Assembly: GCF_003058225.1 (NCBI RefSeq)
Contig: NZ_QBUG01000005.1
Coordinates: 310,001 to 374,000 of the forward strand
DNA from: Promicromonospora sp. AC04
GTDB lineage: Bacteria; Actinomycetota; Actinomycetes; Actinomycetales; Cellulomonadaceae
DNA length: 64,000 bases
Reading direction: 5' to 3'
The notes below the pieces were generated by a model that was not told where the DNA came from, did no database searches, and saw only the letters and a list, made by a program, of their open reading frames with translations. The translations under genes and the position numbers were made by a program. This document shows positions 1 to 13,068 of this stretch, in pieces (within the stretch, counting starts at the first letter, position 1; each line of letters opens with the position of its first letter).

Positions 1-67
1 GCACGTCCAACCCGAGCCCGCTCAGCAGCGCGGAGACGTCGCTGAGGACCGCGTCCCACCAGGCCAT
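1..67 (-). CDS. 5' end of an unidentified gene running off the left edge
   Basis: Reading leftward from an ATG at 67, the frame stays open to the window edge and gives about 22 residues starting MAWWDAVLSDVSALLSGLG. The codons mostly end in G or C, as in neighbouring genes. A TAGCCT box at 74-79 lies six bases before the ATG, the spacing of an actinobacterial leaderless promoter. The family cannot be recognised from so little sequence. Confidence 0.4.
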   Translation of the reverse strand, partial: MAWWDAVLSDVSALLSGLGLDV

Positions 68-205
68 CCGCCCAGGCTAGGGGCGGCCCCCGGGCCGGAA
101 CAGAGGCTCGAGCGGTTCAGGCGGGTGAAGTCACAGCAGATCGAGGGGGATGGCCTCAACCCTTCGGCTGATGCTGCGGGCGAGGGCGGGAGAGATGCCG
201 CCGGC

Positions 206-253
206 GAGTGGTGTTGCTGTGCGTAGACGTTGTCTACGCAGAGCAACACACTC
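206..253. repeat. long inverted repeat, copy A of a two-copy palindromic element
   Basis: The arms at 206-228 and 232-253 pair with one mismatch and one bulged base around a 3-base loop. The right arm and flank (232-256, GTCTACGCAGAGCAACACAC and on) match 45617-45641 exactly over 25 bases. It lies about 50 bases past the stop codon of the minus-strand lyase gene ending at 305, so it could end that operon's transcript. There is no T-run. Perfect sequence sharing with a distant site suggests a repeat family rather than an ordinary terminator. Confidence 0.75.
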
Positions 254-304
254 CGCTGAGTACGTGTCTCCCCCAGGGCTCCAACAACGGTGCAGCGCCG
301 CCCT

Positions 305-1180
305 TCAGCGGGCCAGCCGCAATACCCAGCGCGCCCGCTCAACCATCGCGACGTCGAGAAACGTCCCGTCCTCCAGCGCCACGGCACCGACGCCCTCGGT
401 CGCGGCGTCGCCCACCCGCTCAAGCACCTCTCGCGCAGCCGCGAGTTCTCCGTCGCCAGGCAGGAACGCGGCCCGGATCGTGTCGAGCTGCCCCGGGTGG
501 ATCGCCGTCCGGCCGCAGAAGCCGAGCGCGCGGCCCGTGCGGCATGACGCCGCGAGCCCGTCCAGGTCGCGCACGTTTGTGTACGCCGACATGTGCGGCG
601 GCGGCAGTTTCGCCGCCCGGGCCGCGACGACGACGCGGCTCCTCGCCCAGGTGAGCCCGTCGTCGGCGTCGACCCGCAGGTCCGAGCGTAGGTCCGCCTC
701 CCCCAGCCCGATGGACGCGACCTGCGGCGACGCCGTCGCCAGCTCGAAGGCACGCTCGACGCCGAGCGCCGACTCGACCAGCAGGTGCAGCGCCCGGCCG
801 GGCAGGGCCGCTGCGAGCGCCCGGACCTCGTCGGCCGACTCGACCTTGGGAATGCGCGCGCCGACTCCGGGCGGCAGGGCCGCGACCATCGCGACGTCGT
901 CGACGTGCCACGGCGTGCCGCGGTGGTTGATCCGCACCTGGACGGCCGTGGCGGCCCGGTCAGCAGCCGGGCCACCGGAAGACCCGGCACCCCGGCCACC
1001 GGCCGCGCCGTCGGGCAAGCCCGCGAGCAGCCGCGCCGCGCTCTCCCGCGCCTCCCCCTTGCGCGACGGCGCGACGGCGTCCTCCAGGTCGACGAGCACC
1101 GAGTCGGCCGGCGAGGCCAGCGCCTTGGTGACCCGGTCGGGGCGGTCGGCCGGGACGTACAGCAGGGTCAGCGGCGTCAT
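305..1180 (-). CDS. HpcH/HpaI-CitE family CoA ester lyase
   Basis: This 291-residue protein looks like the beta subunit of citrate lyase and related CoA-ester (malyl-, citramalyl-) lyases, which cleave a hydroxyacyl-CoA in a TIM-barrel site with Mg2+. It begins TPLTLLYVPADRPDRVTKAL and has the family's VLVDLEDAV segment near residue 30 and a metal-binding glutamate in IPKVESADEV. An Ala/Gly-rich insert (around residues 55-75) is not typical. Its ATG overlaps the stop of the CoA-transferase gene by 4 bases, so the two are translationally coupled and probably act in sequence: one makes a CoA thioester, the other splits it. The actual substrate is not known. Confidence 0.85.
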   Translation of the reverse strand: MTPLTLLYVPADRPDRVTKALASPADSVLVDLEDAVAPSRKGEARESAARLLAGLPDGAAGGRGAGSSGGPAADRAATAVQVRINHRGTPWHVDDVAMVAALPPGVGARIPKVESADEVRALAAALPGRALHLLVESALGVERAFELATASPQVASIGLGEADLRSDLRVDADDGLTWARSRVVVAARAAKLPPPHMSAYTNVRDLDGLAASCRTGRALGFCGRTAIHPGQLDTIRAAFLPGDGELAAAREVLERVGDAATEGVGAVALEDGTFLDVAMVERARWVLRLAR

Positions 1181-2385
1181 ACCGCCCCCTCCTCCCGCAG
1201 CTCCGCGACCCGCTCGGCACTGAACCCCAGCTCACCCAGCACGAGATCCGTGTCCGCGCCGTGCGGCCGGCCGGTGAACTGGATGACGCCGTCGTGCTCC
1301 GAGAGCCGGAACAGCGGCCCCTGCATCAGCATCGGCCCCAGCTCGGGGTCGTCGATCTCGTGGATCGTCCCGAGCGCCTGGAACTGGGGGTCCTCGACGA
1401 TGTCCCGCGCGTCGTACACGGGGGCGACGGCGGCCTGGGCCTCCTCGAACGCCGCCACCACCTCGTCGCGTGTCCGCAGCGCGATCCACCCGCCCACGGC
1501 CTCGTCCAGCTCCTCGGCGTGTCGAGCCCGGTCGACGCCGCGGGCGAACCACGGCTCGTCCACGAGCTCCGGACGCCCGACCAGCCGCACCACGCGCTCC
1601 GCGATCGACTGCGCCGACGTCGACACCGCCACCCAGTGCCCGTCGCTCGTGCGGTAGGTGTTGCGGGGCGCGTTGTTGCTGGACCGGTTACCGGTCCGAG
1701 CCTGCACGGTCCCCAGCTGGTCCCAGCGCGTGATCTGCGGCCCGAGCATCGCGAGGATCGGCTCGACGATCGCGGTGTCCACTACCTGCCCGTGGCCGGT
1801 CCGGTCGCGCACCGAGAGCGCCGTCATGATGGCGAACGCGGTGGCCAGCGACGCGACGCCGTCGGCCAGGCCGAAGGGGGGCAGGGTGGGCGGGCCGTCG
1901 GGCTCGCCGGTCATCGCCGCGAAGCCGCTCATCGCCTCGGCGAGCGTGCCGAACCCCGGGCGCGCGCGGTACGGGCCGGTCTGGCCGAACCCGGAGATCC
2001 GCGCGAGCACGAGGCGCGGGTTGCGGGCCGACAGCTCCGCGTAGCCCAGGCCCCAGCGTTCGAGCGTCCCGGGCCGGAAGTTCTCGATCACCACGTCGGC
2101 CTGCTCCGCCAGGGCGAGGAACACCTCGCGGCCACCGGGCGAGCCCAGGTTCGCGGTGACCGTGCGCTTGTTGCGGCCCAGGGTCTTCCACCAGAGGTTG
2201 ACGCCGTCCTTCGCGGCGCCGTGCGTGCGCGACGGGTCGGGCCTGGCCGGGTGCTCCACCTTGATGACGGAGGCCCCGAGGTCACCCAGGTGCATCGCCG
2301 CCATCGGCCCGGCGAACAGCGTGGACGCGTCCACGACGCGCAGGCCGGCCAGGGCGCCGTCGGCGGGATCGCGGGACACGCTCAT
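1177..2385 (-). CDS. CaiB/BaiF family class III CoA-transferase
   Basis: The 402-residue product matches family III CoA-transferases, which move CoA between carboxylic acids through an aspartyl-CoA mixed anhydride. The N-terminus contains LRVVDASTLFAGPMAAMHLG and GASVIKVEHPARPDPSR. The stretch ENFRPGTLERWGLGY is typical, and Asp175 in FGLADGVASL fits the catalytic aspartate. The ATG at 2385 overlaps the previous stop (ATGA), which decides the start over upstream in-frame codons. With the lyase it suggests that the operon's substrate releases a carboxylate that is activated and cleaved. Confidence 0.88.
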   Translation of the reverse strand: MSVSRDPADGALAGLRVVDASTLFAGPMAAMHLGDLGASVIKVEHPARPDPSRTHGAAKDGVNLWWKTLGRNKRTVTANLGSPGGREVFLALAEQADVVIENFRPGTLERWGLGYAELSARNPRLVLARISGFGQTGPYRARPGFGTLAEAMSGFAAMTGEPDGPPTLPPFGLADGVASLATAFAIMTALSVRDRTGHGQVVDTAIVEPILAMLGPQITRWDQLGTVQARTGNRSSNNAPRNTYRTSDGHWVAVSTSAQSIAERVVRLVGRPELVDEPWFARGVDRARHAEELDEAVGGWIALRTRDEVVAAFEEAQAAVAPVYDARDIVEDPQFQALGTIHEIDDPELGPMLMQGPLFRLSEHDGVIQFTGRPHGADTDLVLGELGFSAERVAELREEGAV

Positions 2386-4520
2386 GCGGTTGCCTCCCCT
2401 CGAACGTCCGACGCCGGATCCGCCGGCAGGTCCCACGCACAACGGAACCCGACGGTGGCGCTCCGCGCGAGCCCGAGCCCCGGGAGCAACAGCTTCACCG
2501 AGTAGTCGGGCGCGTGCCGCCCGCCCTCGACGTACCAGTCGGAGCCCTCGGCCCGGTAGTCGCTGCCGCCCTTGAGCATGACGAACCGGGTGCGGCCGTC
2601 GCTGTGCTCGCTCTCGGTCCAGTTCCACACCGCGGGCTCGACCCGGCGCAGGCCGCCGGTCTCCCCCGCGAGCTGCCACTCGTCCTCGGTCGGCAGCCGG
2701 CCGCCGCGCCACGCGCAGTACGCGCGGGCGTCGTCGAGGTCGACGAACGTCACCGGGTGCCCGTCGGTGCCCGCGGCGGACGGGCCGCCGTCGGCCCAGT
2801 GCGCCAGGAACCGGTGCGGCTCGGCGGGCGCGTAGTCCGTAGCGGCGAGGAACTCGGCGAACTGCGCGTTCGTCACCTCGGTCGCGGCGACCGCGACCGG
2901 CGCGGCCAGCGCGCCGTCGCGCTGCAGCGTCCGCGCGTCGTGCAGGCGTGGCGGAAGCGGCTTCCACTCGTCCACGTAGGGCGCGCCCTGGTACATCCCG
3001 GCCTCCCGCGCGCGGTAGCGCACGGTCAGCACGTAGGGACCTTCCGGCACGACGACGGCGTCCGCATCCGGCGTGCCCGACGGCGTCCGCGAGCTGTCAG
3101 ACGCGTCGGTCGCTCCGGTGACCCGTGGCTCCGACCCGACGGGGCGCCCGACGCGGCGCGCGAGCGCGTGCGGGAACCGGGCGTCGGCGTCGTGCGGCGC
3201 TGCCGCCAGGGCGTCGAGGAGGCCGGGCAGCCACTCGGGCTCCGCGGCGTCCGCGCCCACGTGCAGCAGCGCGGCGATCCCCCGCCCGGGTACGACGACG
3301 TCCGGCCCGCCCGACGGGTCAGACGCACGGATCCCTCCGGTGACCTCTGCGCACGGCGCGTCAGTGAGCGCGACGAGGCGCCCCGCCGCCCGCTCGGGAG
3401 CGTCCACAGCCAGCACCGGCCCGGCGTAGTCGGCGTCGCCCCGGTTCACCAGCGTCCAGAGCGTGACGCCGTCCAGCTCCCACCGGGAGGCGTACACCCC
3501 TGCGGCGTCGGCCTCGGGCGCGAGCTCCGCGAGCGGCGTCCACTCGCCGTCCAGCAGCAGGTCGCCGGCGGCGCGCTGGACGGTCACCAGGCGGCGAACC
3601 GTCGCGGCGTCGCGCCGGGACCAGCCGACCCACACCCCGAACACGACCTCCCACACCATGACGCCCACACCGTTGAGCCACGCGGACTGCAGCTCCGCCG
3701 AGTGGTCCCGGTGCCAGCGCCGCACGTGGTGCTGCATGTGCCGCCGCTCGTACCAGTGCGCGCGCAGCACGCCGGGCACCGGCGAGTCGGCGAAGAACTG
3801 CGCCCACGACGAGGAGTGGTCCTCGATGCGCTCGACCGCCAGCTTCGACTCGCCCTCCAGGACGATCCCGGGCCGCGCCGCCTCCAGCCGCGCGACCAGC
3901 TCGGGCTCGGCCTTCTTCAGGGTGTCGAGGAAGACGCCGTCCGCCCCGAGCTCGGCGACCACCGCGGCCAGCTCGGTGAGGTCGTCGGCGCCGCGCCGCG
4001 TGCCGACGTCCCACGGGTTGTAGTCGACGAACACGTGCAGGCCCGCCTCGTGGAACGTCCGCACCAGGCCGGCGAGGCCTGGCACGTCGCGGTAGAAGTC
4101 CCACTGGTTCCGGTCGTCCAGCCCGATCACCGGGTAGGCGTGCCACAGGACGACGGCGTCGAGCCCGCCGAACCGCTCGCGGGCGTCGCCGAGGAACCGC
4201 TCCGGCGTGAAGCGTCCATCGGAGAACGAGTAGAGCAGCTCGTCCCACAGCCACACCTGCGCCACGGTGCTGCACCGCGCCGCCCAGGCGGCCTCGGGCC
4301 GGGTGTACGCGGCGCCGGAGTAGCCGTGGTGCTTCTTGGCGTCGGAACGCCAGGCCCGCAGGGTCTCGCGCCAGGCCGGCCGGTCCGCCGGGTCCGCGGG
4401 CCCGGAGAAGATCTTGGCCTCGTCCAGGGCTGCGCTCCGCTCGGCGCTCAGCGGCCCGACGCCGACCTCGGTCGGCCGGTCGATCGGCCGCGGGACGAGG
4501 GGGTCGAACGTGTAGCTCAT
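2382..4520 (-). CDS. TIM-barrel (glycosidase-like) protein fused to a SUMF1-type domain
   Basis: The protein has 712 residues in two parts. Residues about 80-300 look like a glycosidase-type barrel, with VVLWHAYPVIGLDD, VFVDYNPWDVGTR, ADGVFLDTLKKAE (Asp199) and VLEGESK (Glu222/Glu224) as possible acidic active-site residues. A beta-rich segment and a Ser/Thr/Asp-rich linker (about 460-485) follow. Residues about 540-696 are a formylglycine-generating-enzyme (SUMF1) fold ending in VGFRCAW. The cysteine pair needed for sulfatase activation is absent: that position reads DYRAEGSDWYVEGG. A sulfatase-maturing role is therefore unlikely, and the domain may bind substrate. It lies between the kinase and CoA-transferase genes and overlaps the latter by 4 bases. 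There is no signal peptide, so it acts in the cytoplasm. Confidence 0.75.
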   Translation of the reverse strand: MSYTFDPLVPRPIDRPTEVGVGPLSAERSAALDEAKIFSGPADPADRPAWRETLRAWRSDAKKHHGYSGAAYTRPEAAWAARCSTVAQVWLWDELLYSFSDGRFTPERFLGDARERFGGLDAVVLWHAYPVIGLDDRNQWDFYRDVPGLAGLVRTFHEAGLHVFVDYNPWDVGTRRGADDLTELAAVVAELGADGVFLDTLKKAEPELVARLEAARPGIVLEGESKLAVERIEDHSSSWAQFFADSPVPGVLRAHWYERRHMQHHVRRWHRDHSAELQSAWLNGVGVMVWEVVFGVWVGWSRRDAATVRRLVTVQRAAGDLLLDGEWTPLAELAPEADAAGVYASRWELDGVTLWTLVNRGDADYAGPVLAVDAPERAAGRLVALTDAPCAEVTGGIRASDPSGGPDVVVPGRGIAALLHVGADAAEPEWLPGLLDALAAAPHDADARFPHALARRVGRPVGSEPRVTGATDASDSSRTPSGTPDADAVVVPEGPYVLTVRYRAREAGMYQGAPYVDEWKPLPPRLHDARTLQRDGALAAPVAVAATEVTNAQFAEFLAATDYAPAEPHRFLAHWADGGPSAAGTDGHPVTFVDLDDARAYCAWRGGRLPTEDEWQLAGETGGLRRVEPAVWNWTESEHSDGRTRFVMLKGGSDYRAEGSDWYVEGGRHAPDYSVKLLLPGLGLARSATVGFRCAWDLPADPASDVRGEATA

Positions 4521-4529
4521 GATGCCTCT

Positions 4530-5582
4530 CTAGTTCTTTTCGACGAGCAGGCGCTCGGCCAGCGCGACGACGTCGGCGGCGTCAGGCACGGCGTCCTGCG
4601 CCCCGAACCGGGTAACGGCGAGCGCCCCGGCCGCCCCGGCCACCTGCGCGGCCTCGACCAGCCCGCACTCGACGGGGCGGGCGAGGGCGGCCGCCAGGAC
4701 GCCGCAGTAGGTGTCGCCCGCGCCCGTGGTGTCCACCGCGGTGACCTGGGCGGCGGGCACGCGGACGGACGGGACGTCACGCTCGGCGACCAGGCTCCCC
4801 TGCCCGCCGAGCGTGACGACGACGGCGGGCACCCGAGCCAGCAGCTCGGCCGCGAGTTCCTCGGGGGTCGCGGAGCCTGTCGCATCGGGCCCACCGGCCG
4901 CACCCGCGCCGGAGTCTCCCGAAGCTGACCCGCCCGCCCCCACCGTCGGACCACCGACCAGGTCAGCGGCCTCGTGCTCGTTGACGACGAGCACGTCGAC
5001 CTCCTCCCAGAGCTCGTCGGGCAGCGGGCGCGACGGCGCGGCGTTGAGCACGAACAGCGCGCCCTCCCGGCGCGCCCGGGCGGCCGCCACGACGGTGTCG
5101 AGCGGGATCTCCAGCTGCGCCAGCACGACGTCGGCGTCCGCGATCCGTTGCGCCTGCGCCGCGCCCACCCGCACGCGCGAGTTCGCCCCGGGCGCCACGA
5201 CTATCGTGTTCTCGCCGTCGGGCGACACGGTGATCAGCGCGGTTCCGGTCGGGGCCGCGACGCGCTCGACGATGTCGGTCCGCACGCCCGCCCCCGCGAG
5301 CGAGGCGAGCAGCAGCTCGCCCGGCTCGTCCCGGCCGAGCGCCCCGACGAACGTGGTGTCCGCTCCCCCGGCGCGCGCCGCGGCGACCGCCTGGTTGGCG
5401 CCCTTGCCGCCGGGCGTGCGGCGGAGGTCGCCGCCGAGAATCGTCTCGCCGCCCGCGGGGTGCCGGGGCACGTCGACGACGAGGTCGACGTTCGCCGAAC
5501 CGACGACGACCACCCGGCCGCCGTCGGCCGAGCCAACGCCCGGGCGGTCGGCGCCCCCGGAGCTCAGGTCCCCCACGCTCAT
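4530..5582 (-). CDS. ribokinase-like PfkB family sugar kinase
   Basis: This is a 350-residue PfkB-fold kinase that probably phosphorylates ribose or a related sugar with ATP. It shows GSANVDLVVDVPRHPAGGET, the glycine pair PGGKGANQAVAAARAGG near residue 58, AAPSRPLPDE, VVVNEHEA and the C-terminal DTTGAGD with catalytic base Asp290. A Gly/Ala/Ser-rich insert (about 213-240) lengthens it beyond usual ribokinases (about 300 residues). The ATG at 5582 overlaps the stop of the upstream glycohydrolase gene (ATGA), which fixes the start. Placed after two ADP-ribosylglycohydrolase-like genes, it could trap ribose freed by them; this is inference. Confidence 0.87.
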   Translation of the reverse strand: MSVGDLSSGGADRPGVGSADGGRVVVVGSANVDLVVDVPRHPAGGETILGGDLRRTPGGKGANQAVAAARAGGADTTFVGALGRDEPGELLLASLAGAGVRTDIVERVAAPTGTALITVSPDGENTIVVAPGANSRVRVGAAQAQRIADADVVLAQLEIPLDTVVAAARARREGALFVLNAAPSRPLPDELWEEVDVLVVNEHEAADLVGGPTVGAGGSASGDSGAGAAGGPDATGSATPEELAAELLARVPAVVVTLGGQGSLVAERDVPSVRVPAAQVTAVDTTGAGDTYCGVLAAALARPVECGLVEAAQVAGAAGALAVTRFGAQDAVPDAADVVALAERLLVEKN

Positions 5583-6979
5583 GCCCCGCCCCCGACGGTT
5601 GAGGCCGGCGCGGCCAGCGCGACGGTGCGCGCCACGAGGTCGTCGATGCGCTGCTCCCCGCCCGGCAGTGAGGTCGCGATCCGCCCGTCGAGGGGCACGG
5701 TCCACCGCTCCCCGATCCCGTCGAGGCCGCGCAGGGCGCCCACGACCCCGCCCACGGTCGCGGCCGCCGAGTCGGTGTCCCACCCGGCGGTGACGGCGAT
5801 CGAGACGGAAGGCCCGAACTCGCCCCGGCCCGCGGTGAGCGCGAACGCGATGACCGCCGCGTTGTTCAGCACGTGCACCCAGTGCAGGTGCCCGTACTCG
5901 GCGTGGATGCGGTCCAGCCCGGCCCGCACGCCCGCCTCGCTCCCGTCACGCTCCGCTCCCAGCGAGCGGCCGAGCCGCACGGCGTCGGCCAGCCGGCTGC
6001 CCGGCGGCACGACGGCGTCCGCTGCGTCGAGCACCTGCTCCACGCCGTCGGCCACCATCGCCGCCGCGGCGAGCGCCGCCGCCCAGGCCGCCCCGTACAC
6101 CCCGTTGCGGGTGTGGCTGAGCCGGGCATCTGCCCAGGCCAGCCGCGCAGCCGTCCGGACGTCGCCGGGCGAGACCCAGCCGAGCAGGTCGGTGCGGATG
6201 AGCGCCCCGATCCACTCGCGGAAGGGGTTGTGGTGCGTCGCGGTCTCGGGCACGGGGCGCGCGTCGAGGATGTTGCGGTACGCGGCGCGCTCGGCCGTGA
6301 AGGTGCGGCCGGCGGGCAGGTCGTCGAGCCAGAGCTGCGCGACGTCGTCGGTGGTGAACCCGCGACCGTGCCGTTCCAGGAGCGCGAGGGCGAGGATCGG
6401 GTAGTTCAGGTCGTCGTCCTCGGGCATCCCGTCGATGTTCTCCTCCAGCGACGTCGGCGCCGACCGGCGGTTCCAGGGCCAGCGCGCCGCGACGTCGTCG
6501 GGCAGGCCGGCGGCCGTGAAGTACCGGTCGAGCGGCCAGCGGCCGGTCGACCGGAGGATCTCCTCGATGCCCGCCCGGGGGATCTTCTCCACGGGTTTCC
6601 CGAGCAGGCAGCCGGCCGCACGGCCGGTCCAGGCGCCGAGCACGCGGTCGGCGTACGCGGCCTCGGGGCTGCCGGGTCCGGACGGCCGCCGCGGCAGCGC
6701 GGGCACGGGCGGCAGCAGCGACTCGAAAGCCGCCCACTCGTCAGGCTCCTCGGGGGCCGACGGCGCGGGCCGGGCTGCCAGCTCGTCCAGCAGCTCGCGC
6801 GCCAGGGCCCGGAGCTCGGGCGACGCCGGCACCGGCCCCGCCCCGGACACCGCCGGCGTCGGGTCACCGCCCGCCGCGACCCAGCGGTCGCGGAGATCGG
6901 TGACGTCCTTGCCCTCGGCCGCCGACTGCACGAGCTCGTGCGTCAGCAGGTCCTCCGGCTGGGCCCAGGTCAGCCTCAC
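5579..6979 (-). CDS. ADP-ribosylglycohydrolase family protein (first of two)
   Basis: The 466-residue protein belongs to the ADP-ribosylglycohydrolase (DraG/ARH) family, Mg2+-dependent all-helical enzymes that cleave ribosyl bonds. It has GAWTGRAAGCLLGKPVEKIP, an acidic EDDDLNYPILALALLE in place of the usual TDDT, and the second metal site AGWDTDSAAATVGGVVGAL. The N-terminal 130 residues are an extra, family-unlike region. It overlaps both neighbours by 4 bases, with a second family member directly upstream. Substrates of such paralogue pairs in sugar operons are unproven; the transporter context suggests a small riboside rather than a modified protein. Confidence 0.88.
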   Translation of the reverse strand: MRLTWAQPEDLLTHELVQSAAEGKDVTDLRDRWVAAGGDPTPAVSGAGPVPASPELRALARELLDELAARPAPSAPEEPDEWAAFESLLPPVPALPRRPSGPGSPEAAYADRVLGAWTGRAAGCLLGKPVEKIPRAGIEEILRSTGRWPLDRYFTAAGLPDDVAARWPWNRRSAPTSLEENIDGMPEDDDLNYPILALALLERHGRGFTTDDVAQLWLDDLPAGRTFTAERAAYRNILDARPVPETATHHNPFREWIGALIRTDLLGWVSPGDVRTAARLAWADARLSHTRNGVYGAAWAAALAAAAMVADGVEQVLDAADAVVPPGSRLADAVRLGRSLGAERDGSEAGVRAGLDRIHAEYGHLHWVHVLNNAAVIAFALTAGRGEFGPSVSIAVTAGWDTDSAAATVGGVVGALRGLDGIGERWTVPLDGRIATSLPGGEQRIDDLVARTVALAAPASTVGGGA

Positions 6980-8178
6980 GCGGGCTCACCCGCCGTCGCC
7001 ACGTCGGCAGGGGCGACGGCGTCGAGCGCCACCAGCCGGGTCAGGGCCCGCTCCCGGTCCGCCCGCAGGATGTCGGCCGCGGCGGAGGCCATGAGCCGGC
7101 CGGTCTCCCGGACGTCCATCTTGCTCGCGGACTCGACCTCGTCGAGCCACTCGGCGGGCACGACGCCGCTCCCGCCCAGCCCCGCGCTGATCGCGCCGGC
7201 CATGACGGCTATCGAGTCGGCGTCGCGACCGTAGTTCACCGCGGCCAGCACGGCCCCGCGGTAGTCGCCGCGGTGGGCGAGCAGGAGCCCGAGGGCGACC
7301 GGCAGCTCCTCGATCGACTTGGTGCGCGAGGGGCGGCGCGCGTCCATCGACATCTGCCGGTACTCCGGCCCGACCGAGTCGTACGGGGCAACGGCCTCCC
7401 GGACGAGGCGCGCGAGCTCGCGCTCCTCGTCGTCGGTCGCCGGCCTCCCTCCGGCACCCGAGCCGGTCCACCCGGCGACCGCGTCCACCACCGCGTGGAG
7501 CGCCGCGGCGGTCCCGTCGTGCGCGACGTCGAACGCCGCCACCACGACGTCGTCGAGCGTGGCGCCCGGGGCGACCGACGCCGCCACCATCGCCGCGAAG
7601 ACGCCGGCCGCCTCACGCCCGTAGCTGGACTGGTGGGCGCCCGTGAGGTCGATCGCCTCGGCGTAGGCGCCCCGCGGGTCGCCCGCGTTCGCGAGCCCGA
7701 TGGGCGCCGCGTACATGGCGGCCCCGCAGTTGACGACGTTGCCCACACCAGCCTCGCGCGGGTCCACGTGCCCGTAGTGCAGCCGGGCCACCAGCCACTT
7801 CTCGGCGAGGAACACGCGCTGGAGCAGCAGCACCGTCGACTCGAGCTCGGGAATCCAGCGGGGCTCGCCGATCATGAGCGGCACCAGGTCCTCGGCCATC
7901 GCGTACGCGTCGAGGTGCTCGCGCCGCTTCGCATAGACCTCCACCAGTGCCCTGGTCATGAGGGTGTCGTCGGTGATGTGCCCGTCGCCCTTGTGGTATG
8001 GCGCAATGGGGCGCGCGTCCTGCCAGTTCGGGTACCAGGGCCCGACGATGCCGCGCACGCGGCCCCCGTGCCGCTCCTCGATCTGCTCGGGTGTCCAGCC
8101 CTCGGTGGCGCCACCAAGGGCGTCTCCCACGGCAGCACCGGTGATCACAGCCACCGACCGTTCCTCTAACCAGCTCAC
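6976..8178 (-). CDS. ADP-ribosylglycohydrolase family protein (second of two)
   Basis: This 400-residue ADP-ribosylglycohydrolase-fold protein has the canonical N-terminal VITGAAVGDALGGATEGW, the metal motif GHITDDTLMTRA (TDDT at 69-72) and the C-terminal YGRDADSIAVMAGAISAG. I chose the GTG at 8178 because an AAGGAG ribosome site lies 7 bases upstream and the conserved domain begins about ten residues in; the longer open frame has unlike codons. It is coupled to the following paralogue by an ATGA overlap. It differs from that paralogue in keeping the usual metal ligands, so the two may handle different anomers or act as a heteromer. Confidence 0.87.
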   Translation of the reverse strand: MSWLEERSVAVITGAAVGDALGGATEGWTPEQIEERHGGRVRGIVGPWYPNWQDARPIAPYHKGDGHITDDTLMTRALVEVYAKRREHLDAYAMAEDLVPLMIGEPRWIPELESTVLLLQRVFLAEKWLVARLHYGHVDPREAGVGNVVNCGAAMYAAPIGLANAGDPRGAYAEAIDLTGAHQSSYGREAAGVFAAMVAASVAPGATLDDVVVAAFDVAHDGTAAALHAVVDAVAGWTGSGAGGRPATDDEERELARLVREAVAPYDSVGPEYRQMSMDARRPSRTKSIEELPVALGLLLAHRGDYRGAVLAAVNYGRDADSIAVMAGAISAGLGGSGVVPAEWLDEVESASKMDVRETGRLMASAAADILRADRERALTRLVALDAVAPADVATAGEPA

Positions 8179-8248
8179 GGCTACGCTCCTTCGTCGTTCC
8201 TCGCCCGCCGCGCGTCGCGGCACGTCCCCCGCTCGTCCCCGGTGATCG

Positions 8249-9523
8249 TTACTGCGTGATCTCCTCCCAGCCGCTCGTGAGCTGCTCGGCGAGCTCCGCC
8301 TCGTCGGTCTCCTGCGCGAGGTAGCGCTGGTAGGCCGGCGTCGCCACCGTGTCCTTCCACTGCGCGTAGGAGTCGGCGAACAGGTACGGGGCCGAGACAA
8401 AGTTCTGGCCCCCGGCCAGGATCGTGCTCCAGCCGTTCTCGTCGCCGAGCTTGTCGGTCATGGCCTCCTGCGCCGACGTCGTCGCCGGGATCAGGGCGTC
8501 CGCCTCGTTGAGCGCGGCGAGGTTCTCCGTCTGGGTGAAGAACTCGATGAACTCGGCGGACTCCTCGACGTGCTCGGAGTCGATGTTGACCGACAGCGTC
8601 TGCGGGTTGGCCGCCTGCTGCGGGCCCTCGGGGCCGGCCAGCGGCGGCAGGGCCACCCAGTCGAAGCCCTCCGGCGCGTCCTTGGTGATGTTCGCGGCCT
8701 GGTAGGAGCCCTGCACGGTCATCGCCGTCTGCCCGGCGTAGAACGACGCGATGGCCTCGGACCCCGACTGCGTCATGGTGACCGGGAGGATCGACTTGTC
8801 CTCGTACGCCATGGCGTGCACTTGCTCCGGCAGGGCCATCTCGCCGTCGCCGATCGTCAGGGTGGCGTCCTCGCCGGTGCCCTCGATGTAGGTGCCGCCG
8901 AACCCGGGGGCCAGCGACATGAACGTTGCGGTCGGGCTCGCCAGGCCCCAGCCGAGGCCGTAGACGTCGCCCTTCGTGGTCGCCTTCGCGATCTCGCGCA
9001 GCTCGTCCCAGGTCATGGTGTCGCCGGTCGGGATCTCGACGCCGGAGTCCTCCAGGAGCTTCCGGTTGGCGAAGACCACGTACGACTGCAGCTCGGTCGG
9101 GTACGCGATCACCTGGTCGTCGACGGTCACGGAGTCGAGGATGCCCTCGGGGATGTCCGCGCGGCGCTCGTCCGACATGAGGTCGGTGAGGTCCGCGAGG
9201 TAGCCGTCCCGGGCGAACGAGACGATGCTCGCGGCCTCGTAGTGGATGATGTCGGGCGCGGCGCCGCCGTTGAACTGGGTGATGAGCTTGTCGTAGACGC
9301 CGTCCCAGCCGGCGGGGACGATCTCGACCTGGACGTCGGGGTTCTCCTCGTTCCAGTCCGCGACTATCGACTCCGTCGCCGCGATGGCGGCCGGCTGGTC
9401 GGACAGCGCCTGGAACTTCAGCGTCACCGGGCCGTCGTCGCCCGCGTCACCGCTGCCGCAGGACGCGAGCAGCAGGGTGGTGATCGTGAGGCATGCGGCG
9501 ATGGACACTCCACGAGTCTTCAT
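8249..9523 (-). CDS. extracellular sugar-binding lipoprotein of ABC importer (operon 1)
   Basis: This 424-residue solute-binding protein family 1 lipoprotein captures the substrate outside the membrane for the two permeases encoded just upstream. The N-terminus MKTRGVSIAACLTITTLLLASCGSG has a basic start, hydrophobic core and a lipobox with the lipidated Cys at 22. The mature part has the usual layout of two alpha/beta lobes, with FQALSDQPAAIAATESIVAD early on. The ATG at 9523 follows a purine-rich GAAAGGC site. It is encoded third in the operon, 70 bases before the glycohydrolase gene. Ligand cannot be told from sequence. Confidence 0.88.
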   Translation of the reverse strand: MKTRGVSIAACLTITTLLLASCGSGDAGDDGPVTLKFQALSDQPAAIAATESIVADWNEENPDVQVEIVPAGWDGVYDKLITQFNGGAAPDIIHYEAASIVSFARDGYLADLTDLMSDERRADIPEGILDSVTVDDQVIAYPTELQSYVVFANRKLLEDSGVEIPTGDTMTWDELREIAKATTKGDVYGLGWGLASPTATFMSLAPGFGGTYIEGTGEDATLTIGDGEMALPEQVHAMAYEDKSILPVTMTQSGSEAIASFYAGQTAMTVQGSYQAANITKDAPEGFDWVALPPLAGPEGPQQAANPQTLSVNIDSEHVEESAEFIEFFTQTENLAALNEADALIPATTSAQEAMTDKLGDENGWSTILAGGQNFVSAPYLFADSYAQWKDTVATPAYQRYLAQETDEAELAEQLTSGWEEITQ

Positions 9524-9570
9524 GGGTCTGCCTTTCGGATAGGTTCTTGCGGGGTGGTTCGGGTGGGCGG

Positions 9571-10410
9571 TCATCCCTTGACCGCCCCGGCCATGAGGCC
9601 GCCGGTGAGCTTCTTCTGCATGATCGAGAAGAAGACGATGCTGGGTATCGCGGCGAGCACGGAGCCCGCCGCAAGGGGGCCGAGCGCGACCTTTCCCTCG
9701 CCGCCGATGAACGTCGACAGGGTGATCGGCAGGGTGTAGTTCTCGGGCGACTGCAGCAGGACCAACGCGAAGAAGAACTCGTTCCAGGAGGACACGAAGC
9801 TGAACATCGCCGTCGCGACGACGCCGGGGGCGAGCAGCGGGAAGACGATCCGGCGCAGCACCACCAGGCGGTTGCCGCCGTCCATCGCCCCGGCCTCCTC
9901 GAGGTCCACGGGGATCGCGGCCACGTAGCCCTGCAGCATCCACAGCGCGAACGGCAGCGTGTACGTGGTGTGCACGAGGGTGAGCCCCACGAGACTGTCC
10001 GTCAGCCCGATCGTCCGCAGCACGAGGAACAGCGGCAGGATCACGAGCACCACGGGGAACACCTGGCTCACCAGGATCCAGCCGACGCCGGCCGCGCGGA
10101 TCGCCCCCTTGAGCCGCGCCAGCACGTAGGACGCGGGCAGCGCGACGAGGATGACGAGCGCTGTGGACGCCAGCGCCACGATCGCGCTGTTCCCCGCGGA
10201 GCTCACGAGGCCCTGGCGGGCGAGCGCGTCGGCGTAGTTCTCCCAGTGCCACTCCTGCGGCAGCAGGCTCACCACGAGCGAGTTGAGCTCGGCGGACGAC
10301 TTCACCGACGCCGAGATCAGCCACAGCAGCGGGAACCCGAGGAACACTATGTAACAGGCCAGCGCCACGTACTGGGCGAGGCGGACCAGCTGCTGGGCTA
10401 AGACGCGCAT
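9571..10410 (-). CDS. carbohydrate ABC transporter permease, MalG type (operon 1)
   Basis: A 279-residue inner-membrane permease of the CUT1 family with hydrophobic segments throughout. The EAA-loop EEAGAMDGGNRLVVLRRIVF contacts the ATPase, and the ending GGLMAGAVKG is typical of MalG-type subunits. It starts 4 bases after the stop of the MalF-type gene and pairs with that product. No ATP-binding subunit is encoded in this operon, so it most likely uses a shared MsiK/UgpC-type ATPase encoded elsewhere. Confidence 0.9.
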   Translation of the reverse strand: MRVLAQQLVRLAQYVALACYIVFLGFPLLWLISASVKSSAELNSLVVSLLPQEWHWENYADALARQGLVSSAGNSAIVALASTALVILVALPASYVLARLKGAIRAAGVGWILVSQVFPVVLVILPLFLVLRTIGLTDSLVGLTLVHTTYTLPFALWMLQGYVAAIPVDLEEAGAMDGGNRLVVLRRIVFPLLAPGVVATAMFSFVSSWNEFFFALVLLQSPENYTLPITLSTFIGGEGKVALGPLAAGSVLAAIPSIVFFSIMQKKLTGGLMAGAVKG

Positions 10411-10414
10411 CAGC

Positions 10415-11395
10415 TCAGCCCTCCTTCTTTTTCGTCTCGACGCGGTCGTCGCGCAGCTGCGACCGCAGGTAGACCGCGAGGAGGAGGACGACCACGACGA
10501 CGAGCACGACGCCCATCGCCGCCGCGTACCCGATGTTGCGGTTCTTGAACGCCTCCAGGTAGGTGAACAGCATCGGCAGCATGGTGCGGCCGCCGGGCCC
10601 GCCCTCGGTCAGCACGTAGACCAGGGAGAACGAGTTGAAGTTCCAGATGAAGTTCAGCGACGTGATCGACGTGAGGATCGGCCGCAGGCTCGGCAGCGTG
10701 ACCGCCCAGAACCGGCGCCAGGCGCCGGCGCCGTCCATCGCTGCGGCCTCGTGCAGCTCGGCCGGGATCTGCTGCAGCCCGGCGAGCAGCGTCACCGTGG
10801 TCTGCGGCATGCCCACCCAGACGCCGACGACGATGACGGCGGGCAGGGCGGTCGAGAAGTCGGCGAGCCAGTTGATGTCGTCCGGCAGGCCCAGCGAGCC
10901 GAGGAACGCGTTGAGCGGCCCCGCGTTCGGCGAGTAGATCATCTTCCACATGATCGCCACGACGACGGGCGGCATCGCCCACGGGATCAGCGCCAGCACT
11001 CGGGTGAGCCCCTGCAGCCGCAGCCCGGAGTTGAGCAGCTGCGCCAGGCCCAGCGCGGCGACGAGCTGCAGGAGCGTCACCGCGACGGCCCAGATCATGC
11101 CGATGCGGAACGAGTCCCAGAAGAACGAGTTGCCGGCCAGCCGCACGAAGTTGTCGACGCCGACGAACTGGTAGTCGGGGCGCCGCACGAGCTCCGCATC
11201 GGTGAACGCCAGGAGCACGCCCATGAGCAGCGGCGCGACGGACAGCACGAGGATCGGCAGCAGCGACGGCATCACCAGCGCGGCCGCCTCCCGGCGTCGG
11301 GCACGGTCCAGGCCGCTCGGGGCACGACGGCGGTCCGAGCGGCCGCCCTGGCGGGGTACCGGCGTCGGCGGCCGGGACGAGGTGGCGACGGTCAT
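10415..11395 (-). CDS. carbohydrate ABC transporter permease, MalF type (operon 1)
   Basis: This 326-residue permease has a long basic, Pro/Arg-rich cytoplasmic N-terminus (about 45 residues). A first hydrophobic segment around ALVMPSLLPILVLSVAPLLM and later segments follow, with the EAA loop HEAAAMDGAGAWRRFWAVTL. It forms the membrane channel with the MalG-type partner. Its ATG overlaps the stop of the LacI-type gene (ATGA), placing regulator and transporter on the same transcript. Confidence 0.9.
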   Translation of the reverse strand: MTVATSSRPPTPVPRQGGRSDRRRAPSGLDRARRREAAALVMPSLLPILVLSVAPLLMGVLLAFTDAELVRRPDYQFVGVDNFVRLAGNSFFWDSFRIGMIWAVAVTLLQLVAALGLAQLLNSGLRLQGLTRVLALIPWAMPPVVVAIMWKMIYSPNAGPLNAFLGSLGLPDDINWLADFSTALPAVIVVGVWVGMPQTTVTLLAGLQQIPAELHEAAAMDGAGAWRRFWAVTLPSLRPILTSITSLNFIWNFNSFSLVYVLTEGGPGGRTMLPMLFTYLEAFKNRNIGYAAAMGVVLVVVVVLLLAVYLRSQLRDDRVETKKKEG

Positions 11396-12495
11396 CGTGC
11401 GCTCTTCTCCTTCGAAGCGGGCGGGCCGGCGACGTCTTCGGCGCCGGGCAGATCAGCGGGCGTGGCAGCGGGCGGGTCCGCAGGCAGGGTGGACTCGCGC
11501 ACGACGAGGTGCGGCCCGATGGCGATCTGCTGGGCGGGCTCGACGACGTCGCCCACCCGGTCCAGGACGAGCCGGGCCGCCGCGCGGCCGCGCTCGGCTG
11601 ACCCGAGGGACACGCTGGTCAGGCTCGGCTGGAAGACGCGGCCGATCTCGGTGTCGTCCATGCCGGTGATCGCGAGCGCGCCGGGCACGGACAGCCCCAG
11701 CTCCCCGGCGGCCCGGATGACGCCGATGGCGAGCAGGTCGTTGGCGGCGACGACGGCGTCGAACGGGCCCGCCGCCGGGGTGCGGGACAGCAGGCGGCGC
11801 GCGGCGGCGAGCCCCGCCGCGACGGTGAAGTCGTCGGCCTGCTCGGTCTCCGCGTGGTCCCCGGCGAACGCGGGCCCGCTCGTGGCGGCGTCGAAGCCGC
11901 GCTGCCGGGCAGCGCCCGGCGTGGTGTCCAGCGGTCCGTTGACAAAGCCGATGCGGCGTCGGCCGATCTCCACGAGGTGGGCGACTGCCTGGCCGAGGCC
12001 CGCGGCCGAGTCCGTGGAGACGGAGTCGATGCCCTGCTTCTCGAGCGAGCGCCCGATGACGACGACGGGGACCGGCGCCTGCTGGATCGCCTTCACGAGC
12101 TCGTCGTCGGTGCGCAGCGGGCTGACGATCAGGCCGTCCACGAAGCCGCTGCCGAGGCTCCGGACCAGGTCGATCGTGGAGGCCACGGTGTGGCCGGTGG
12201 ACATGACGACCACCCGGTAACCGTGGGGCGCGAGGACCTCGTGGATGGCGGTGAGCATCTCGACGTAGACCGGGTTGCCGATGTCGGCGACGGCGAACGC
12301 GACCTGGAAGGTCCGCTTCATCCGCAGCGACCGGCCGATCGCGTCCGGGCTGTAGCCGAGCTCGGCGGCCGCGGCGCGGACGCGGTCGACCATCGCCCGA
12401 CTCGCTCCCGTGCCGTGCAGCGCCCGTGAGGTCGACGCGAGCGACACCCCGGCGCGCTCCGCCACCTGCATCAGGGTGGCGCGTGATGACGACAC
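11392..12495 (-). CDS. LacI family transcriptional regulator of operon 1
   Basis: A 367-residue LacI/GalR repressor with an N-terminal helix-turn-helix (TLMQVAERAGVSLASTSRAL), a hinge helix (SPDAIGRSLRMKRT) and a periplasmic-binding-like effector domain containing GLIVSPLR and AITGMDDTEIGR. I prefer the GTG at 12495, which has GTGGAG five bases upstream; GTG at 12501 is possible. It is the first gene of the minus-strand operon and lies beside two GGAAACGTTTCC palindromes, so it probably represses its own operon until the sugar ligand binds. Confidence 0.87.
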   Translation of the reverse strand: MSSSRATLMQVAERAGVSLASTSRALHGTGASRAMVDRVRAAAAELGYSPDAIGRSLRMKRTFQVAFAVADIGNPVYVEMLTAIHEVLAPHGYRVVVMSTGHTVASTIDLVRSLGSGFVDGLIVSPLRTDDELVKAIQQAPVPVVVIGRSLEKQGIDSVSTDSAAGLGQAVAHLVEIGRRRIGFVNGPLDTTPGAARQRGFDAATSGPAFAGDHAETEQADDFTVAAGLAAARRLLSRTPAAGPFDAVVAANDLLAIGVIRAAGELGLSVPGALAITGMDDTEIGRVFQPSLTSVSLGSAERGRAAARLVLDRVGDVVEPAQQIAIGPHLVVRESTLPADPPAATPADLPGAEDVAGPPASKEKSAR

Positions 12496-12543
12496 TGTCA
12501 CTCCACTTCGTCGTGAGGTTCTGCTGGCGGTTCCGGTTCGGAC

Positions 12544-12557
12544 TGGAAACGTTTCCA
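12544..12557. promoter_or_regulatory. LacI-type operator 1, TGGAAACGTTTCCA
   Basis: A perfect 14-base palindrome with the central CG typical of LacI/GalR operators. It lies 49 bases upstream of the LacI start codon. The 16 bases 12541-12556 recur exactly at 12575-12590, 34 bases (about three helical turns) further upstream, so two dimers could bind on the same face of the DNA. Confidence 0.8.
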
Positions 12558-12578
12558 ATTCGCGAGTGCGTACAGACT

Positions 12579-12590
12579 GGAAACGTTTCC
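12579..12590. promoter_or_regulatory. LacI-type operator 2, GGAAACGTTTCC
   Basis: Second copy of the palindrome, inside a 16-base direct repeat of the first site (GACTGGAAACGTTTCC). Together the two sites bracket the likely promoter of the 12 kb minus-strand operon. Confidence 0.78.
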
Positions 12591-12652
12591 TGTGATGGCG
12601 GCCAGTGTGGCACCGAGCCAAACAAGACGTCAAGCGGCCGAGTGACAGGCCA

Positions 12653-12734
12653 TCGCGAACCGCAACCTACGGGTCCAGCCAGTCGCCGAGCCGTCGCGAA
12701 CCGCAACCTACGGGTCCAGCCAGTCGCCGAGCCG
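12653..12734. repeat. two exact 41-base tandem repeats
   Basis: The 41-base unit starting TCGCGAACCGCAACCTACGG occupies 12653-12693 and again 12694-12734 without a mismatch. It lies in the 0.7 kb gap between the LacI gene and the oxidoreductase at 13233. No open frame with good codon use crosses it. A recent duplication is the simplest reading; two units with no spacer do not make a CRISPR array. Confidence 0.85.
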
Positions 12735-12802
12735 CAACGAACTGACCAATCAGCGCCCAAGTGGACCATCAAGCTTCGGCTCGACAGCGCGCCAGACGGC
12801 TG

Positions 12803-12854
12803 GCTTGCGGGTCGGCGTCAAGGGGGTGGAGGTGGAGCTTGCGGGTCGGCGTCA
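12803..12854. repeat. 18-base direct repeat pair
   Basis: GCTTGCGGGTCGGCGTCA occurs at 12803-12820 and again at 12837-12854, 34 bases apart. The second copy ends over the stop codon of the possible small membrane protein gene (12852-12968). Such short duplications are common at deletion or insertion scars. Confidence 0.7.
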
Positions 12855-12968
12855 CGCCGTCGGCAGCAGGAGCGCGTAGCCGGCGAAGCCGAACAGCGAC
12901 CTCCACACCAGCCCCCGCACCCCGGGCACCCGCGTGATCGGCAGATCTTGGTTCGGTGCGGTCGACAT
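12852..12968 (-). CDS. possible small membrane protein or gene remnant, 38 residues
   Basis: An ATG at 12968 opens a 38-codon frame: MSTAPNQDLPITRV followed by a hydrophobic end GLVWRSLFGFAGYALLLPTA. All but about three codons end in G or C, as expected of real genes here, and not for chance frames in this otherwise repeat-rich gap. It starts four bases after the stop of another short coding-like frame. It may be a small membrane protein, or the broken 5' end of a permease gene. Function unknown. Confidence 0.4.
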   Translation of the reverse strand: MSTAPNQDLPITRVPGVRGLVWRSLFGFAGYALLLPTA

Positions 12969-12972
12969 CCCG

Positions 12973-13068
12973 TCAGGCGCCGTCGCCGGTGGTCTCGTCG
13001 CGCAGGTCACTCATGAACTCACCCTGGGCGGCCGGGGCGCGGCCCCGAAACGCGGCGGCCCGGCCCGC
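12973..13068 (-). pseudogene. possible C-terminal remnant of a lost gene
   Basis: This frame has no sensible start in its first half but strongly GC-ending codons. It translates to a tail reading RAPAAQGEFMSDLRDETTGD before a TGA, four bases before the ATG of the small frame at 12968. The pattern of a gene 3' end followed by a tightly spaced start suggests remains of a two-gene unit. The family is not recognised and the call is weak. Confidence 0.25.

What the first reader, a model, noticed from the sequence alone, without database searches (positions are those of the whole stretch)
305..12495. Ten-gene operon combining sugar import, two ADP-ribosylglycohydrolase-fold proteins, a ribokinase-like kinase and CoA-thioester chemistry
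Gene order and 4-base overlaps show one transcription unit: LacI regulator, permeases, binding protein, two ARH-fold proteins, ribokinase, TIM-barrel/SUMF fusion, CaiB CoA-transferase, CitE lyase. Each family is known, but I know of no pathway using this set. A consistent model is import of a ribosylated or glycosylated acid, cleavage of the ribosyl bond by the ARH proteins, phosphorylation of the sugar, and CoA activation plus lyase cleavage of the acid. The model is inference.
Basis: partly seen in the sequence, partly recalled or inferred. Interest (0 to 1): 0.85.

Follow-up and report, generated by a model that had tools for sequence, protein, structure and literature searches.

The report
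Sugar-uptake operon with ADP-ribosylhydrolase-fold enzymes
A soil bacterium carries a widely conserved ten-gene set that probably imports and breaks down an unknown sugar-linked acid, using enzymes of a family usually thought to remove ADP-ribose tags from proteins; the compound is not known, but it can be tested.

Summary
Ten co-directional genes (window 12495 to 305, minus strand; Promicromonospora-like genome) have the stated families and mostly 4-base overlaps. Conservation reaches well beyond the genus: 45 of 63 full-length actinobacterial loci hold all ten, and CaiB and CitE are each in 59 of 63. Two rhizobial plasmids hold a version without kinase and TIM/SUMF gene. Nine unnamed, Streptomyces-like loci hold four ARH-fold genes, CaiB and CitE without an importer. 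The sampled actinobacterial CaiBs next to ARH genes form one supported clade. Two LacI-type operators precede the operon; the site occurs three times in 6.85 Mb. Catalytic residues are kept.

Ribose and a malate- or citramalate-like acid are inference; PfkB and TIM/SUMF are dispensable, and CaiB also occurs without ARH genes. The wider point: ARH-fold proteins here look like catabolic glycosidases, by gene order perhaps including S. coelicolor SCO2028-2031. SCO2028 and SCO2030 were inactive on uridine-linked ADP-ribose (PMC13036486), but so was another ARH homologue that is active elsewhere, so this weighs little.

The parts
12579..12590 (.). LacI-type operator 1, GGAAACGTTTCC
   Evidence: three sites in the 6.85-Mb genome
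12545..12556 (.). LacI-type operator 2, GGAAACGTTTCC
   Evidence: AACGTT lies within 250 bp upstream of LacI in 68 of 71 orthologous loci against 0.025 expected
11392..12495 (-). LacI-family regulator
   Evidence: Pfam PF00356 and PF13377 above cut-off
10415..11395 (-). CUT1-type sugar importer permease (MalF/UgpA-like)
   Evidence: PF00528 above cut-off; best NCBIfam hit UgpA, below cut-off
9571..10410 (-). second importer permease (MalG-like)
   Evidence: PF00528 above cut-off
8249..9523 (-). lipoprotein sugar-binding protein (N-terminus MKTRG...LLLASCGSG)
   Evidence: PF01547 and PF13416 above cut-off; distant solved relatives are mostly sugar-binding proteins
6976..8178 (-). ARH1: ADP-ribosylglycohydrolase-family protein with complete metal motifs (E26, T69-D70-D71-T72, D319, D321, S322)
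   Evidence: PF03747; motif residues 100% in 78 sequences; below the curated cut-offs for DraG and Tri1
5579..6979 (-). ARH2: ADP-ribosylglycohydrolase-family protein with an N-terminal extension of about 100 aa; metal motifs E131, E187-D190, D401-S404
   Evidence: PF03747; AlphaFold model pLDDT 91.6 matches DraG and ARH3 structures; motifs 100% in 80 sequences
4530..5582 (-). PfkB-family, ribokinase-like sugar kinase
   Evidence: PF00294; ribokinase model 256.1 bits against cut-off 299.65; N, D, GGKG, N, E and D of the ribokinase motifs 100% in 58 sequences
2382..4520 (-). glycosidase-like TIM barrel plus beta domain plus SUMF domain; no signal peptide seen by eye
   Evidence: PF03781 for the SUMF part only; model pLDDT 82; weak Foldseek matches to glycosidases and FGE; D194, D199, E222, E224 100% in 69 sequences
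1177..2385 (-). CaiB, class III CoA-transferase, catalytic Asp D175
   Evidence: PF02515, 401 bits; D175 100% in 73 sequences
305..1180 (-). CitE, HpcH/HpaI-CitE-type acyl-CoA lyase, R83, E136, D163, D276
   Evidence: PF03328; best NCBIfam model RipC citramalyl-CoA lyase, far below cut-off; residues 100% in 71 sequences
188..272 (.). imperfect inverted repeat past CitE, possible transcription end

Best explanation
A LacI-controlled catabolic operon for an imported glycoside. The repressor binds two GGAAACGTTTCC operators. A CUT1 importer (binding protein plus two permeases, ATPase supplied from elsewhere in the genome) brings in a small glycosylated compound. In the cytoplasm the glycosidase-like TIM/SUMF protein and the two metal-dependent ARH-fold proteins cut its glycosidic bonds. 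The released sugar, most likely D-ribose, is phosphorylated by the PfkB kinase. The released acid gets a CoA thioester from the class III CoA-transferase CaiB, and CitE splits it by a retro-Claisen reaction into an acyl-CoA and a 2-oxoacid. By the chemistry of these two families (recalled) the acid is most likely a 2-hydroxydicarboxylate of the malate or citramalate type. Shown: gene set, conservation, the operator sequences, domain identities and conserved catalytic residues. Inferred: co-transcription, repressor binding, the shared ATPase, the direction and order of steps, the bond type, ribose, and the acid. My estimates: catabolic operon for an imported glycoside 0.8; ARH proteins act as glycosidases on a small molecule rather than on ADP-ribosylated macromolecules 0.65; sugar is ribose 0.4; acid is malate/citramalate-like 0.35; the whole chain as written 0.25.
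For: Ten-gene conservation: 45 of 63 full loci complete; ARH1 62, permeases and binding protein 62 each, LacI 61, CaiB 59, CitE 59, TIM/SUMF 55, PfkB 51 of 63. Recurrent 4-bp overlaps. AACGTT operator cores upstream of LacI in 68 of 71 loci; three full sites in the genome, the third before another LacI-ribokinase-MFS row. Same logic in two rhizobial plasmids with 37-39% identical ARH1 and 45% identical CaiB. All four PF03747 matches in the host genome lie in two loci that also hold LacI and CUT1 importer genes (the second binding protein by eye). ARH1 at E<=1e-40 was found in 10 of 396 phylum genomes and all 10 also have the CaiB, with a gap of 1.4-2.6 kb in nine and 4.6 kb in the window. The ARH-linked actinobacterial CaiBs in the tree are one clade. 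Active-site residues complete.
Against: No substrate evidence. PfkB missing in 12 of 63 and TIM/SUMF in 8 of 63 full loci, both absent near the two rhizobial clusters. Four of 63 loci (L033, L054, L064, L091) lack CaiB and CitE. No importer or LacI match was seen in the nine Streptomyces-like stretches. CaiB occurs without ARH genes in 23 of 32 fetched loci. The fold alone does not exclude ADP-ribosyl substrates. PfkB, CaiB and CitE score below the curated functional cut-offs. The glycosidase resemblance of the TIM protein is weak (TM-scores 0.5 or less, about 12% identity). The 10-of-10 coincidence of ARH1 and CaiB rests on two lineages, with at most four candidates scored per genome.
Confidence: 0.6

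Rival explanations
1. The ARH proteins remove ADP-ribose from proteins, nucleic acids or NAD-derived metabolites, as the name says, and sit in this operon because ADP-ribose or nucleotide-derived ribose is salvaged as food.
For: Fold and metal site match DraG and ARH3. The S. coelicolor DraG homologues are listed as putative ADP-ribosylhydrolases (PMC9411070, PMC5087735, passages read). Another S. coelicolor ARH homologue, SCO5809, does reverse phosphate-linked RNA ADP-ribosylation (PMC11833690, passages read). The repressor of the related E. coli operon yegTUV responds to a nucleotide sugar, ADP-glucose (PMC10819704).
Against: Scores far below the curated DraG (337) and Tri1 (490) cut-offs: ARH1 48.7 and 38.5, ARH2 19.1 for DraG. 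No ADP-ribosyltransferase, macrodomain or Nudix match among the ten by Pfam. A CUT1 sugar importer and a CoA module are not expected for protein de-modification. SCO2028 and SCO2030 had no detectable activity on U-alpha-ADPr (PMC13036486, passages read); this weighs little, because the ARH homologue listed there as SCO5909 (apparently SCO5809) was inactive too, and I saw no test of other linkages for SCO2028 or SCO2030.
Confidence: 0.15
2. Two modules share one operon: a glycoside-uptake module (LacI, importer, ARHs, PfkB, TIM/SUMF) and an independent organic-acid module (CaiB-CitE) whose acid comes from elsewhere.
For: CaiB occurs without ARH in 23 of 32 fetched loci, 13 with CitE on the same strand; ten of these were read out, and in seven an IclR-like regulator is nearby (by eye), with cyclase, MmgE/PrpD, amidohydrolase and FAD-dependent proteins confirmed by Pfam in the two loci tested, L119 and L148. 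Nitratireductor and Deinococcus have the ARH-importer part alone.
Against: Association kept in 59 of 63 loci, through rearrangement, in importer-less Streptomyces-like loci and in rhizobia; ARH-linked actinobacterial CaiBs are one clade.
Confidence: 0.2
3. The ARH-fold enzymes cleave a non-ribosyl bond (a hexosyl, arabinosyl or glycosylamine bond), and PfkB acts on another sugar or only sometimes.
For: PfkB is dispensable (51 of 63) and absent near the two rhizobial clusters, where the second ARH gene is a 700-aa protein with an unassigned C-terminal half. A glycosidase-like TIM protein is present in 55 of 63 loci.
Against: Kinase motifs are those of ribokinase, and characterised ARH enzymes act on ADP-ribosyl bonds (PMC7050489, passages read).
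Confidence: 0.25

Closest known systems
E. coli yegTUV (GgaR/YegW target; PMC10819704, abstract and passages read)
   Same: One operon of transporter, ARH-family protein (YegU) and PfkB-family sugar kinase (YegV) with a dedicated repressor; neighbouring genes overlap by 4 bp. ARH1 profile against YegU: hhalign probability 98%, E 4e-14, both metal motifs aligned.
   Different: Predicted nucleoside:H+ symporter instead of CUT1 importer, GntR-family instead of LacI regulator, one ARH instead of two, no CoA-transferase or lyase. The paper states that the functions of yegTUV are unknown and links the operon to ADP-glucose and glycogen. ARH2 matches YegU only weakly (probability 8%).
DraG / ARH1-3 / Tri1 ADP-ribosylhydrolases
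   Same: Fold and metal-site motifs.
   Different: 12-20% identity in the Foldseek matches listed, scores far below curated equivalog cut-offs, catabolic gene context instead of a transferase or nitrogenase context.
S. coelicolor SCO2028-SCO2031 DraG homologues (PMC9411070, PMC5087735, PMC13036486, passages read)
   Same: Nine unnamed, Streptomyces-like loci hold ARH3-ARH4-ARH1-ARH2 next to CaiB-CitE; in L138, the one read out, trpB and trpA are close by (by eye), and the S. coelicolor trp genes are numbered just above (SCO2038 is trpX, abstract of PMC5036795). Assignment to the locus tags is my inference from recalled gene order, not from sequence.
   Different: No importer or LacI match was seen in those stretches; ARH4 shows no metal motif in four of the five sequences scanned.
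Class III CoA-transferase plus CitE-type lyase pairs (malate, citramalate or itaconate catabolism; recalled)
   Same: Domain families and catalytic residues.
   Different: No hydratase among the ten; below functional cut-offs (CaiB 219 of 700 for mesaconate, CitE 136.8 of 375 for RipC); placed in a glycoside operon.
CUT1 sugar-importer operons of actinobacteria (recalled)
   Same: LacI, binding protein, two permeases, no ATPase gene, palindromic operator.
   Different: Enzyme set contains ARH-fold proteins and CoA chemistry.

Membership tests
ADP-ribosylhydrolase (DraG/ARH) by fold | all-helical ARH fold | tested here: met
   PF03747 above cut-off for both; ARH2 model matches 1t5j, DraG and ARH3 entries, TM (target) 0.57-0.78 in the rows listed; ARH1 was not modelled
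ADP-ribosylhydrolase (DraG/ARH) by fold | binuclear metal site motifs (DD(T/D) and DxD(S/T)) | tested here: met
   100% conserved in 78 ARH1 and 80 ARH2 sequences
ADP-ribosylhydrolase by function | score above NCBIfam equivalog cut-offs (DraG TIGR02662, Tri1 NF041672) | tested here: not met
   ARH1 48.7 of 337 and 38.5 of 490; ARH2 19.1 of 337
ADP-ribosylhydrolase by function | hydrolysis of ADP-ribosyl substrates | not testable with these tools
   needs assay; SCO2028 and SCO2030 inactive on U-alpha-ADPr, as was another ARH homologue (PMC13036486)
Ribokinase RbsK | score above TIGR02152 cut-off | tested here: not met
   256.1 of 299.65 bits
Ribokinase RbsK | sugar- and ATP-site motifs (NxD, GGKGAN, E, GAGD; roles recalled) | tested here: met
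   (58 sequences) and alignment to ribokinase 6znx
Class III CoA-transferase | CoA_transf_3 domain and catalytic Asp | tested here: met
   401 bits; D175 in 73 of 73 (catalytic role recalled)
CitE-type acyl-CoA lyase | HpcH/HpaI domain with Arg, Glu, Asp metal and substrate residues | tested here: met
   roles recalled
Citramalyl-CoA lyase RipC | score above NF038242 cut-off | tested here: not met
   136.8 of 375
Formylglycine-generating enzyme | SUMF domain | tested here: met
   PF03781 73.4 bits; Foldseek to FGE
Formylglycine-generating enzyme | C-terminal pair of catalytic Cys (recalled) | tested here: not met
   one Cys near the C-terminus, C694, in 81% of 69 sequences; none in the 640-690 stretch of the window protein
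Glycoside hydrolase with TIM barrel (GH13-like) | acidic residues at the ends of barrel strands 4 and 5 (GH13 rule recalled) | tested here: inconclusive
   D199 after strand 195-198 and E224 at the end of strand 220-224, both invariant (strand numbering is my reading), but Foldseek TM-scores are 0.5 or less and no Pfam GH family matched

The most novel reading that the evidence does not exclude
The ADP-ribosylhydrolase fold has a large branch of true catabolic glycosidases for small molecules, here serving a pathway not described in the papers I could search, in which a glycosylated (probably ribosylated) hydroxy-acid is imported, deglycosylated by paired ARH enzymes and finished by CoA transfer and retro-Claisen cleavage. 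Many of the 'DraG homologues' of actinobacteria, including SCO2028-2031, would belong to it and not to ADP-ribosylation signalling.
Probability: 0.4. Interest if true: 0.8.

Novelty: new variant of a known kind. Interest (0 to 1): 0.6.

Why it matters
If right, a protein family read as erasers of ADP-ribosylation contains a whole branch of carbon-catabolic glycosidases, which would change how ADP-ribosylation repertoires are counted (four of the eight DraG/ARH homologues listed for S. coelicolor in PMC9411070, if my gene-order assignment holds). It also points to a carbon source that many soil actinobacteria and some rhizobia can use and that the searched papers do not name, with a binding protein, an operator and six enzymes ready for assay.

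Tried and rejected
An ARH2-PfkB fusion in rhizobia was suspected from the 690-700 aa length; BLAST showed an ARH domain plus an unassigned C-terminal half, so the idea was dropped. A search for further genes that travel with the operon found, besides the ten, mostly antisense frames and small groups; these were not followed one by one. FGE, EgtB or SenA function for the SUMF domain was rejected for lack of the FGE Cys pair (recalled) and scores far below cut-off. A defence function was rejected: no PADLOC match for any of the ten proteins at E<=0.001. A specific substrate (bacillithiol-like glucosaminyl malate, methanopterin, alpha-ribazole, ADP-glucose) was considered from recall only; nothing tested favours one. 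The third genomic operator site lies before another LacI gene followed by a ribokinase-like and an MFS gene, a hint of a ribose link, but LacI paralogues often share operator sequences (recalled), so little weight is given. Nine literature searches listed no paper whose title or abstract start describes this operon; only the papers named in this report were opened, in passages, and the library holds open-licence PMC papers only.


Full report
WHAT IS THERE. Ten minus-strand genes run from 12495 to 305: LacI, two CUT1 permeases, a lipoprotein binding protein, ARH1, ARH2, PfkB, a TIM/SUMF protein, CaiB, CitE. Starts were checked by eye at ARH1 (GTG 8178) and PfkB (ATG 5582, overlapping the ARH2 stop as ATGA). 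No sigma-70-like promoter was found in 1-13300, and the single terminator-like match falls inside the binding-protein gene, below the shuffle mean. An imperfect 41-bp inverted repeat lies past CitE.

CONSERVATION ANCHORED ON ARH2. Of the 63 with full flanks, 45 hold all ten genes; counts of 63: ARH1 62, permeases 62 and 62, binding protein 62, LacI 61, CaiB 59, CitE 59, TIM/SUMF 55, PfkB 51 (best-match ORF at E<=1e-10, no coverage filter). Genera among the 80 include Promicromonospora, Cellulosimicrobium, Cellulomonas, Amycolatopsis, Saccharopolyspora, Nocardiopsis, Jiangella, Micromonospora and Microbacterium. Four-base overlaps are the majority state at six junctions. Exceptions: L033 (Promicromonospora soli) keeps ARH1, ARH2 and PfkB by the loose count, but only ARH2 and PfkB in the stricter map; L054 lacks TIM/SUMF, CaiB and CitE; L064 lacks LacI, ARH1, PfkB, CaiB and CitE; L091 (Leifsonia) lacks PfkB, TIM/SUMF, CaiB and CitE and has an extra ARH2-like gene.

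VARIANTS. In Microbacterium L087, L090, L092 and L099 there is no TIM/SUMF, CaiB-CitE stand upstream of LacI, and an extra ARH gene follows ARH2 (L087 also lacks PfkB). In L087, L090 and L091, read out, a further protein follows it. I call these two ARH3 and ARH4; that ARH4 is of the ARH fold is my reading of weak similarity. In Enemella L098 two further ARH-like genes and a CaiB fragment stand on the other strand upstream of LacI. Nine loci of one unnamed genus (L138-L146; genomes of 7.8-9.9 Mb, which I take for Streptomyces) hold ARH3-ARH4-ARH1-ARH2-(PfkB)-CaiB-CitE without an importer or LacI match in about 20 kb; PfkB was not detected in three of the nine. ARH3 keeps both metal motifs in 9 of 9, while 4 of the 5 ARH4 rows scanned show neither. 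On rhizobial plasmids, Ensifer L112 and Sinorhizobium L116 hold LacI-permease-permease-binding protein-ARH1-ARH(700 aa)-UgpC ATPase-CaiB-CitE; Nitratireductor L111 and Pseudochrobactrum L113 lack CaiB-CitE; Mycolicibacterium L114 and Deinococcus L115 have ARH, ribokinase and CUT1 importer only. Of eight annotated plasmid regions that I opened, seven hold sugar-ABC parts near the ARH gene (L111-L117; in L117 only the ATPase) and one does not (Halalkalicoccus L118).

CONSERVATION ANCHORED ON CAIB AND ARH1. Over 396 genomes drawn across the phylum, CaiB at E<=1e-130 was found in 33. I fetched all 32 that are not the window: 9 have the ARH genes beside it and 23 do not (several stretches are short, and L124 is partly masked). 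Of the 23, 13 have CitE on the same strand. I read out ten of the 23; by eye seven have an IclR-like regulator (L119, L122, L127, L132, L135, L148, L150). Pfam confirmed an amidohydrolase in L119, and cyclase, MmgE/PrpD and FAD-binding proteins in L148. ARH1 (profile, E<=1e-40) was found in 10 of 396, the window's genome and the nine above, so every ARH1 found has its CaiB nearby: gap 1.4-2.6 kb in nine, 4.6 kb in the window. This is only two lineages, with at most four candidates scored per genome. In a CaiB tree of 57 rows the 32 actinobacterial ARH-linked sequences form one group (99/97), the 23 unlinked fall outside, and the two rhizobial ones are a distant long branch (midpoint root, long-branch warning for L137 and the rhizobial pair).

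REGULATION. GGAAACGTTTCC stands twice upstream of LacI, at 12545 and 12579. An AACGTT core lies within 250 bp upstream of LacI in 68 of 71 loci, two or more in 45, against 0.025 expected. The full site occurs three times in 6.85 Mb: here twice, and once before another LacI gene followed by a PfkB kinase and an MFS gene (MFS by eye).

ENZYMES. ARH1 and ARH2 keep their metal motifs in all 78 and 80 sequences. The ARH2 model (pLDDT 91.6) matches MJ1187, DraG and ARH3 at 12-20% identity. Neither protein reaches the curated cut-offs for DraG or Tri1. PfkB has the ribokinase motifs but misses the ribokinase cut-off. The TIM/SUMF model (pLDDT 82) matches glycosidases (neopullulanase, amylases, a GH30 xylanase, AlfB fucosidase, the Klebsiella enzyme Apg) at about 12% identity, and FGE at about 21% for the SUMF part; all TM-scores are 0.5 or less, so the likeness is at the level of the barrel only. 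D199 and E224 sit at the ends of what I count as strands 4 and 5, the GH13 positions as I recall them, and are invariant; the FGE cysteine pair (recalled) is absent. CaiB D175 and CitE R83, E136, D163 are invariant.

GENOME CONTEXT OF ARH GENES. The host genome has four PF03747 matches. Two are here; the other two lie on contig 7 beside a LacI gene and a CUT1 permease (BLAST), with a binding protein and a phosphotransferase-like kinase recognised by eye. So all four ARH genes found in this genome sit in sugar-importer loci.

LITERATURE. S. coelicolor has eight uncharacterised DraG/ARH homologues including SCO2028-2031 (PMC9411070, passage; PMC5087735 lists seven, without SCO2031, passages). 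SCO2028 and SCO2030 showed no activity on U-alpha-ADPr (PMC13036486, passages). That result is weak: the ARH homologue printed there as SCO5909, apparently SCO5809, was inactive too, although SCO5809 reverses phosphate-linked RNA ADP-ribosylation (PMC11833690, passages). The match of the SCO tags to ARH3-ARH4-ARH1-ARH2 is my inference from gene order beside the trp genes. E. coli yegTUV is a transporter-ARH-kinase operon of unknown biochemical function (PMC10819704, abstract and passages). Its ARH, YegU, aligns well with the ARH1 profile (98% probability) but poorly with ARH2 (8%).

JUDGEMENT. Catabolic operon for an imported glycoside: likely (0.8). ARH proteins as small-molecule glycosidases: more likely than not (0.65). 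Ribose (0.4) and a malate- or citramalate-type acid (0.35) are inferences from family chemistry. The kinase and TIM/SUMF protein are accessory; the CoA module is portable but tightly associated. The substrate is unknown, and that keeps the score at 0.6.

Noticed in passing
G000 contig 7, about 6000-12600 (locus L155): A second ARH locus in the same genome: two ARH-family genes beside a LacI gene and a CUT1 permease on the other strand, with a binding protein and a phosphotransferase-like kinase recognised by eye.
   Followed up: partly
G000 contig 2, 196088 (locus L154, 8089): The only other perfect GGAAACGTTTCC in the genome precedes the coding part of a LacI gene followed by a ribokinase-like gene and an MFS-like gene.
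   Followed up: partly
window about 12970-12850, minus strand: A short reading frame resembles the start of the MFS-like gene that stands upstream of LacI in L031 (3248-4456) and soon ends; it looks like a remnant (by eye).
   Followed up: no
window about 12740-12650: A tandem near-duplicate of roughly 40 bases (GGCTCGGCGACTGGCTGGACCCGTAGGTTGCGGTTCGCGA) upstream of the operators (by eye).
   Followed up: no
L119, L122, L127, L132, L135, L148, L150: A recurring CaiB-CitE cluster with an IclR-like regulator (by eye) in other actinobacterial genomes, with cyclase, MmgE/PrpD, amidohydrolase or FAD-dependent proteins where tested (L119, L148); function unknown.
   Followed up: partly
L115 10616-11728: A 370-aa protein without any Pfam match between the sugar-binding protein and the ARH gene in Deinococcus aetherius, possibly another catabolic enzyme.
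   Followed up: no
window 5579-6979 (ARH2 model): Among the five best Foldseek matches of the ARH2 model are chains of the Chlamydomonas chloroplast FtsHi motor complex (8xqw_G, 8xks_Q), so the ARH fold is apparently reused there as well.
   Followed up: no
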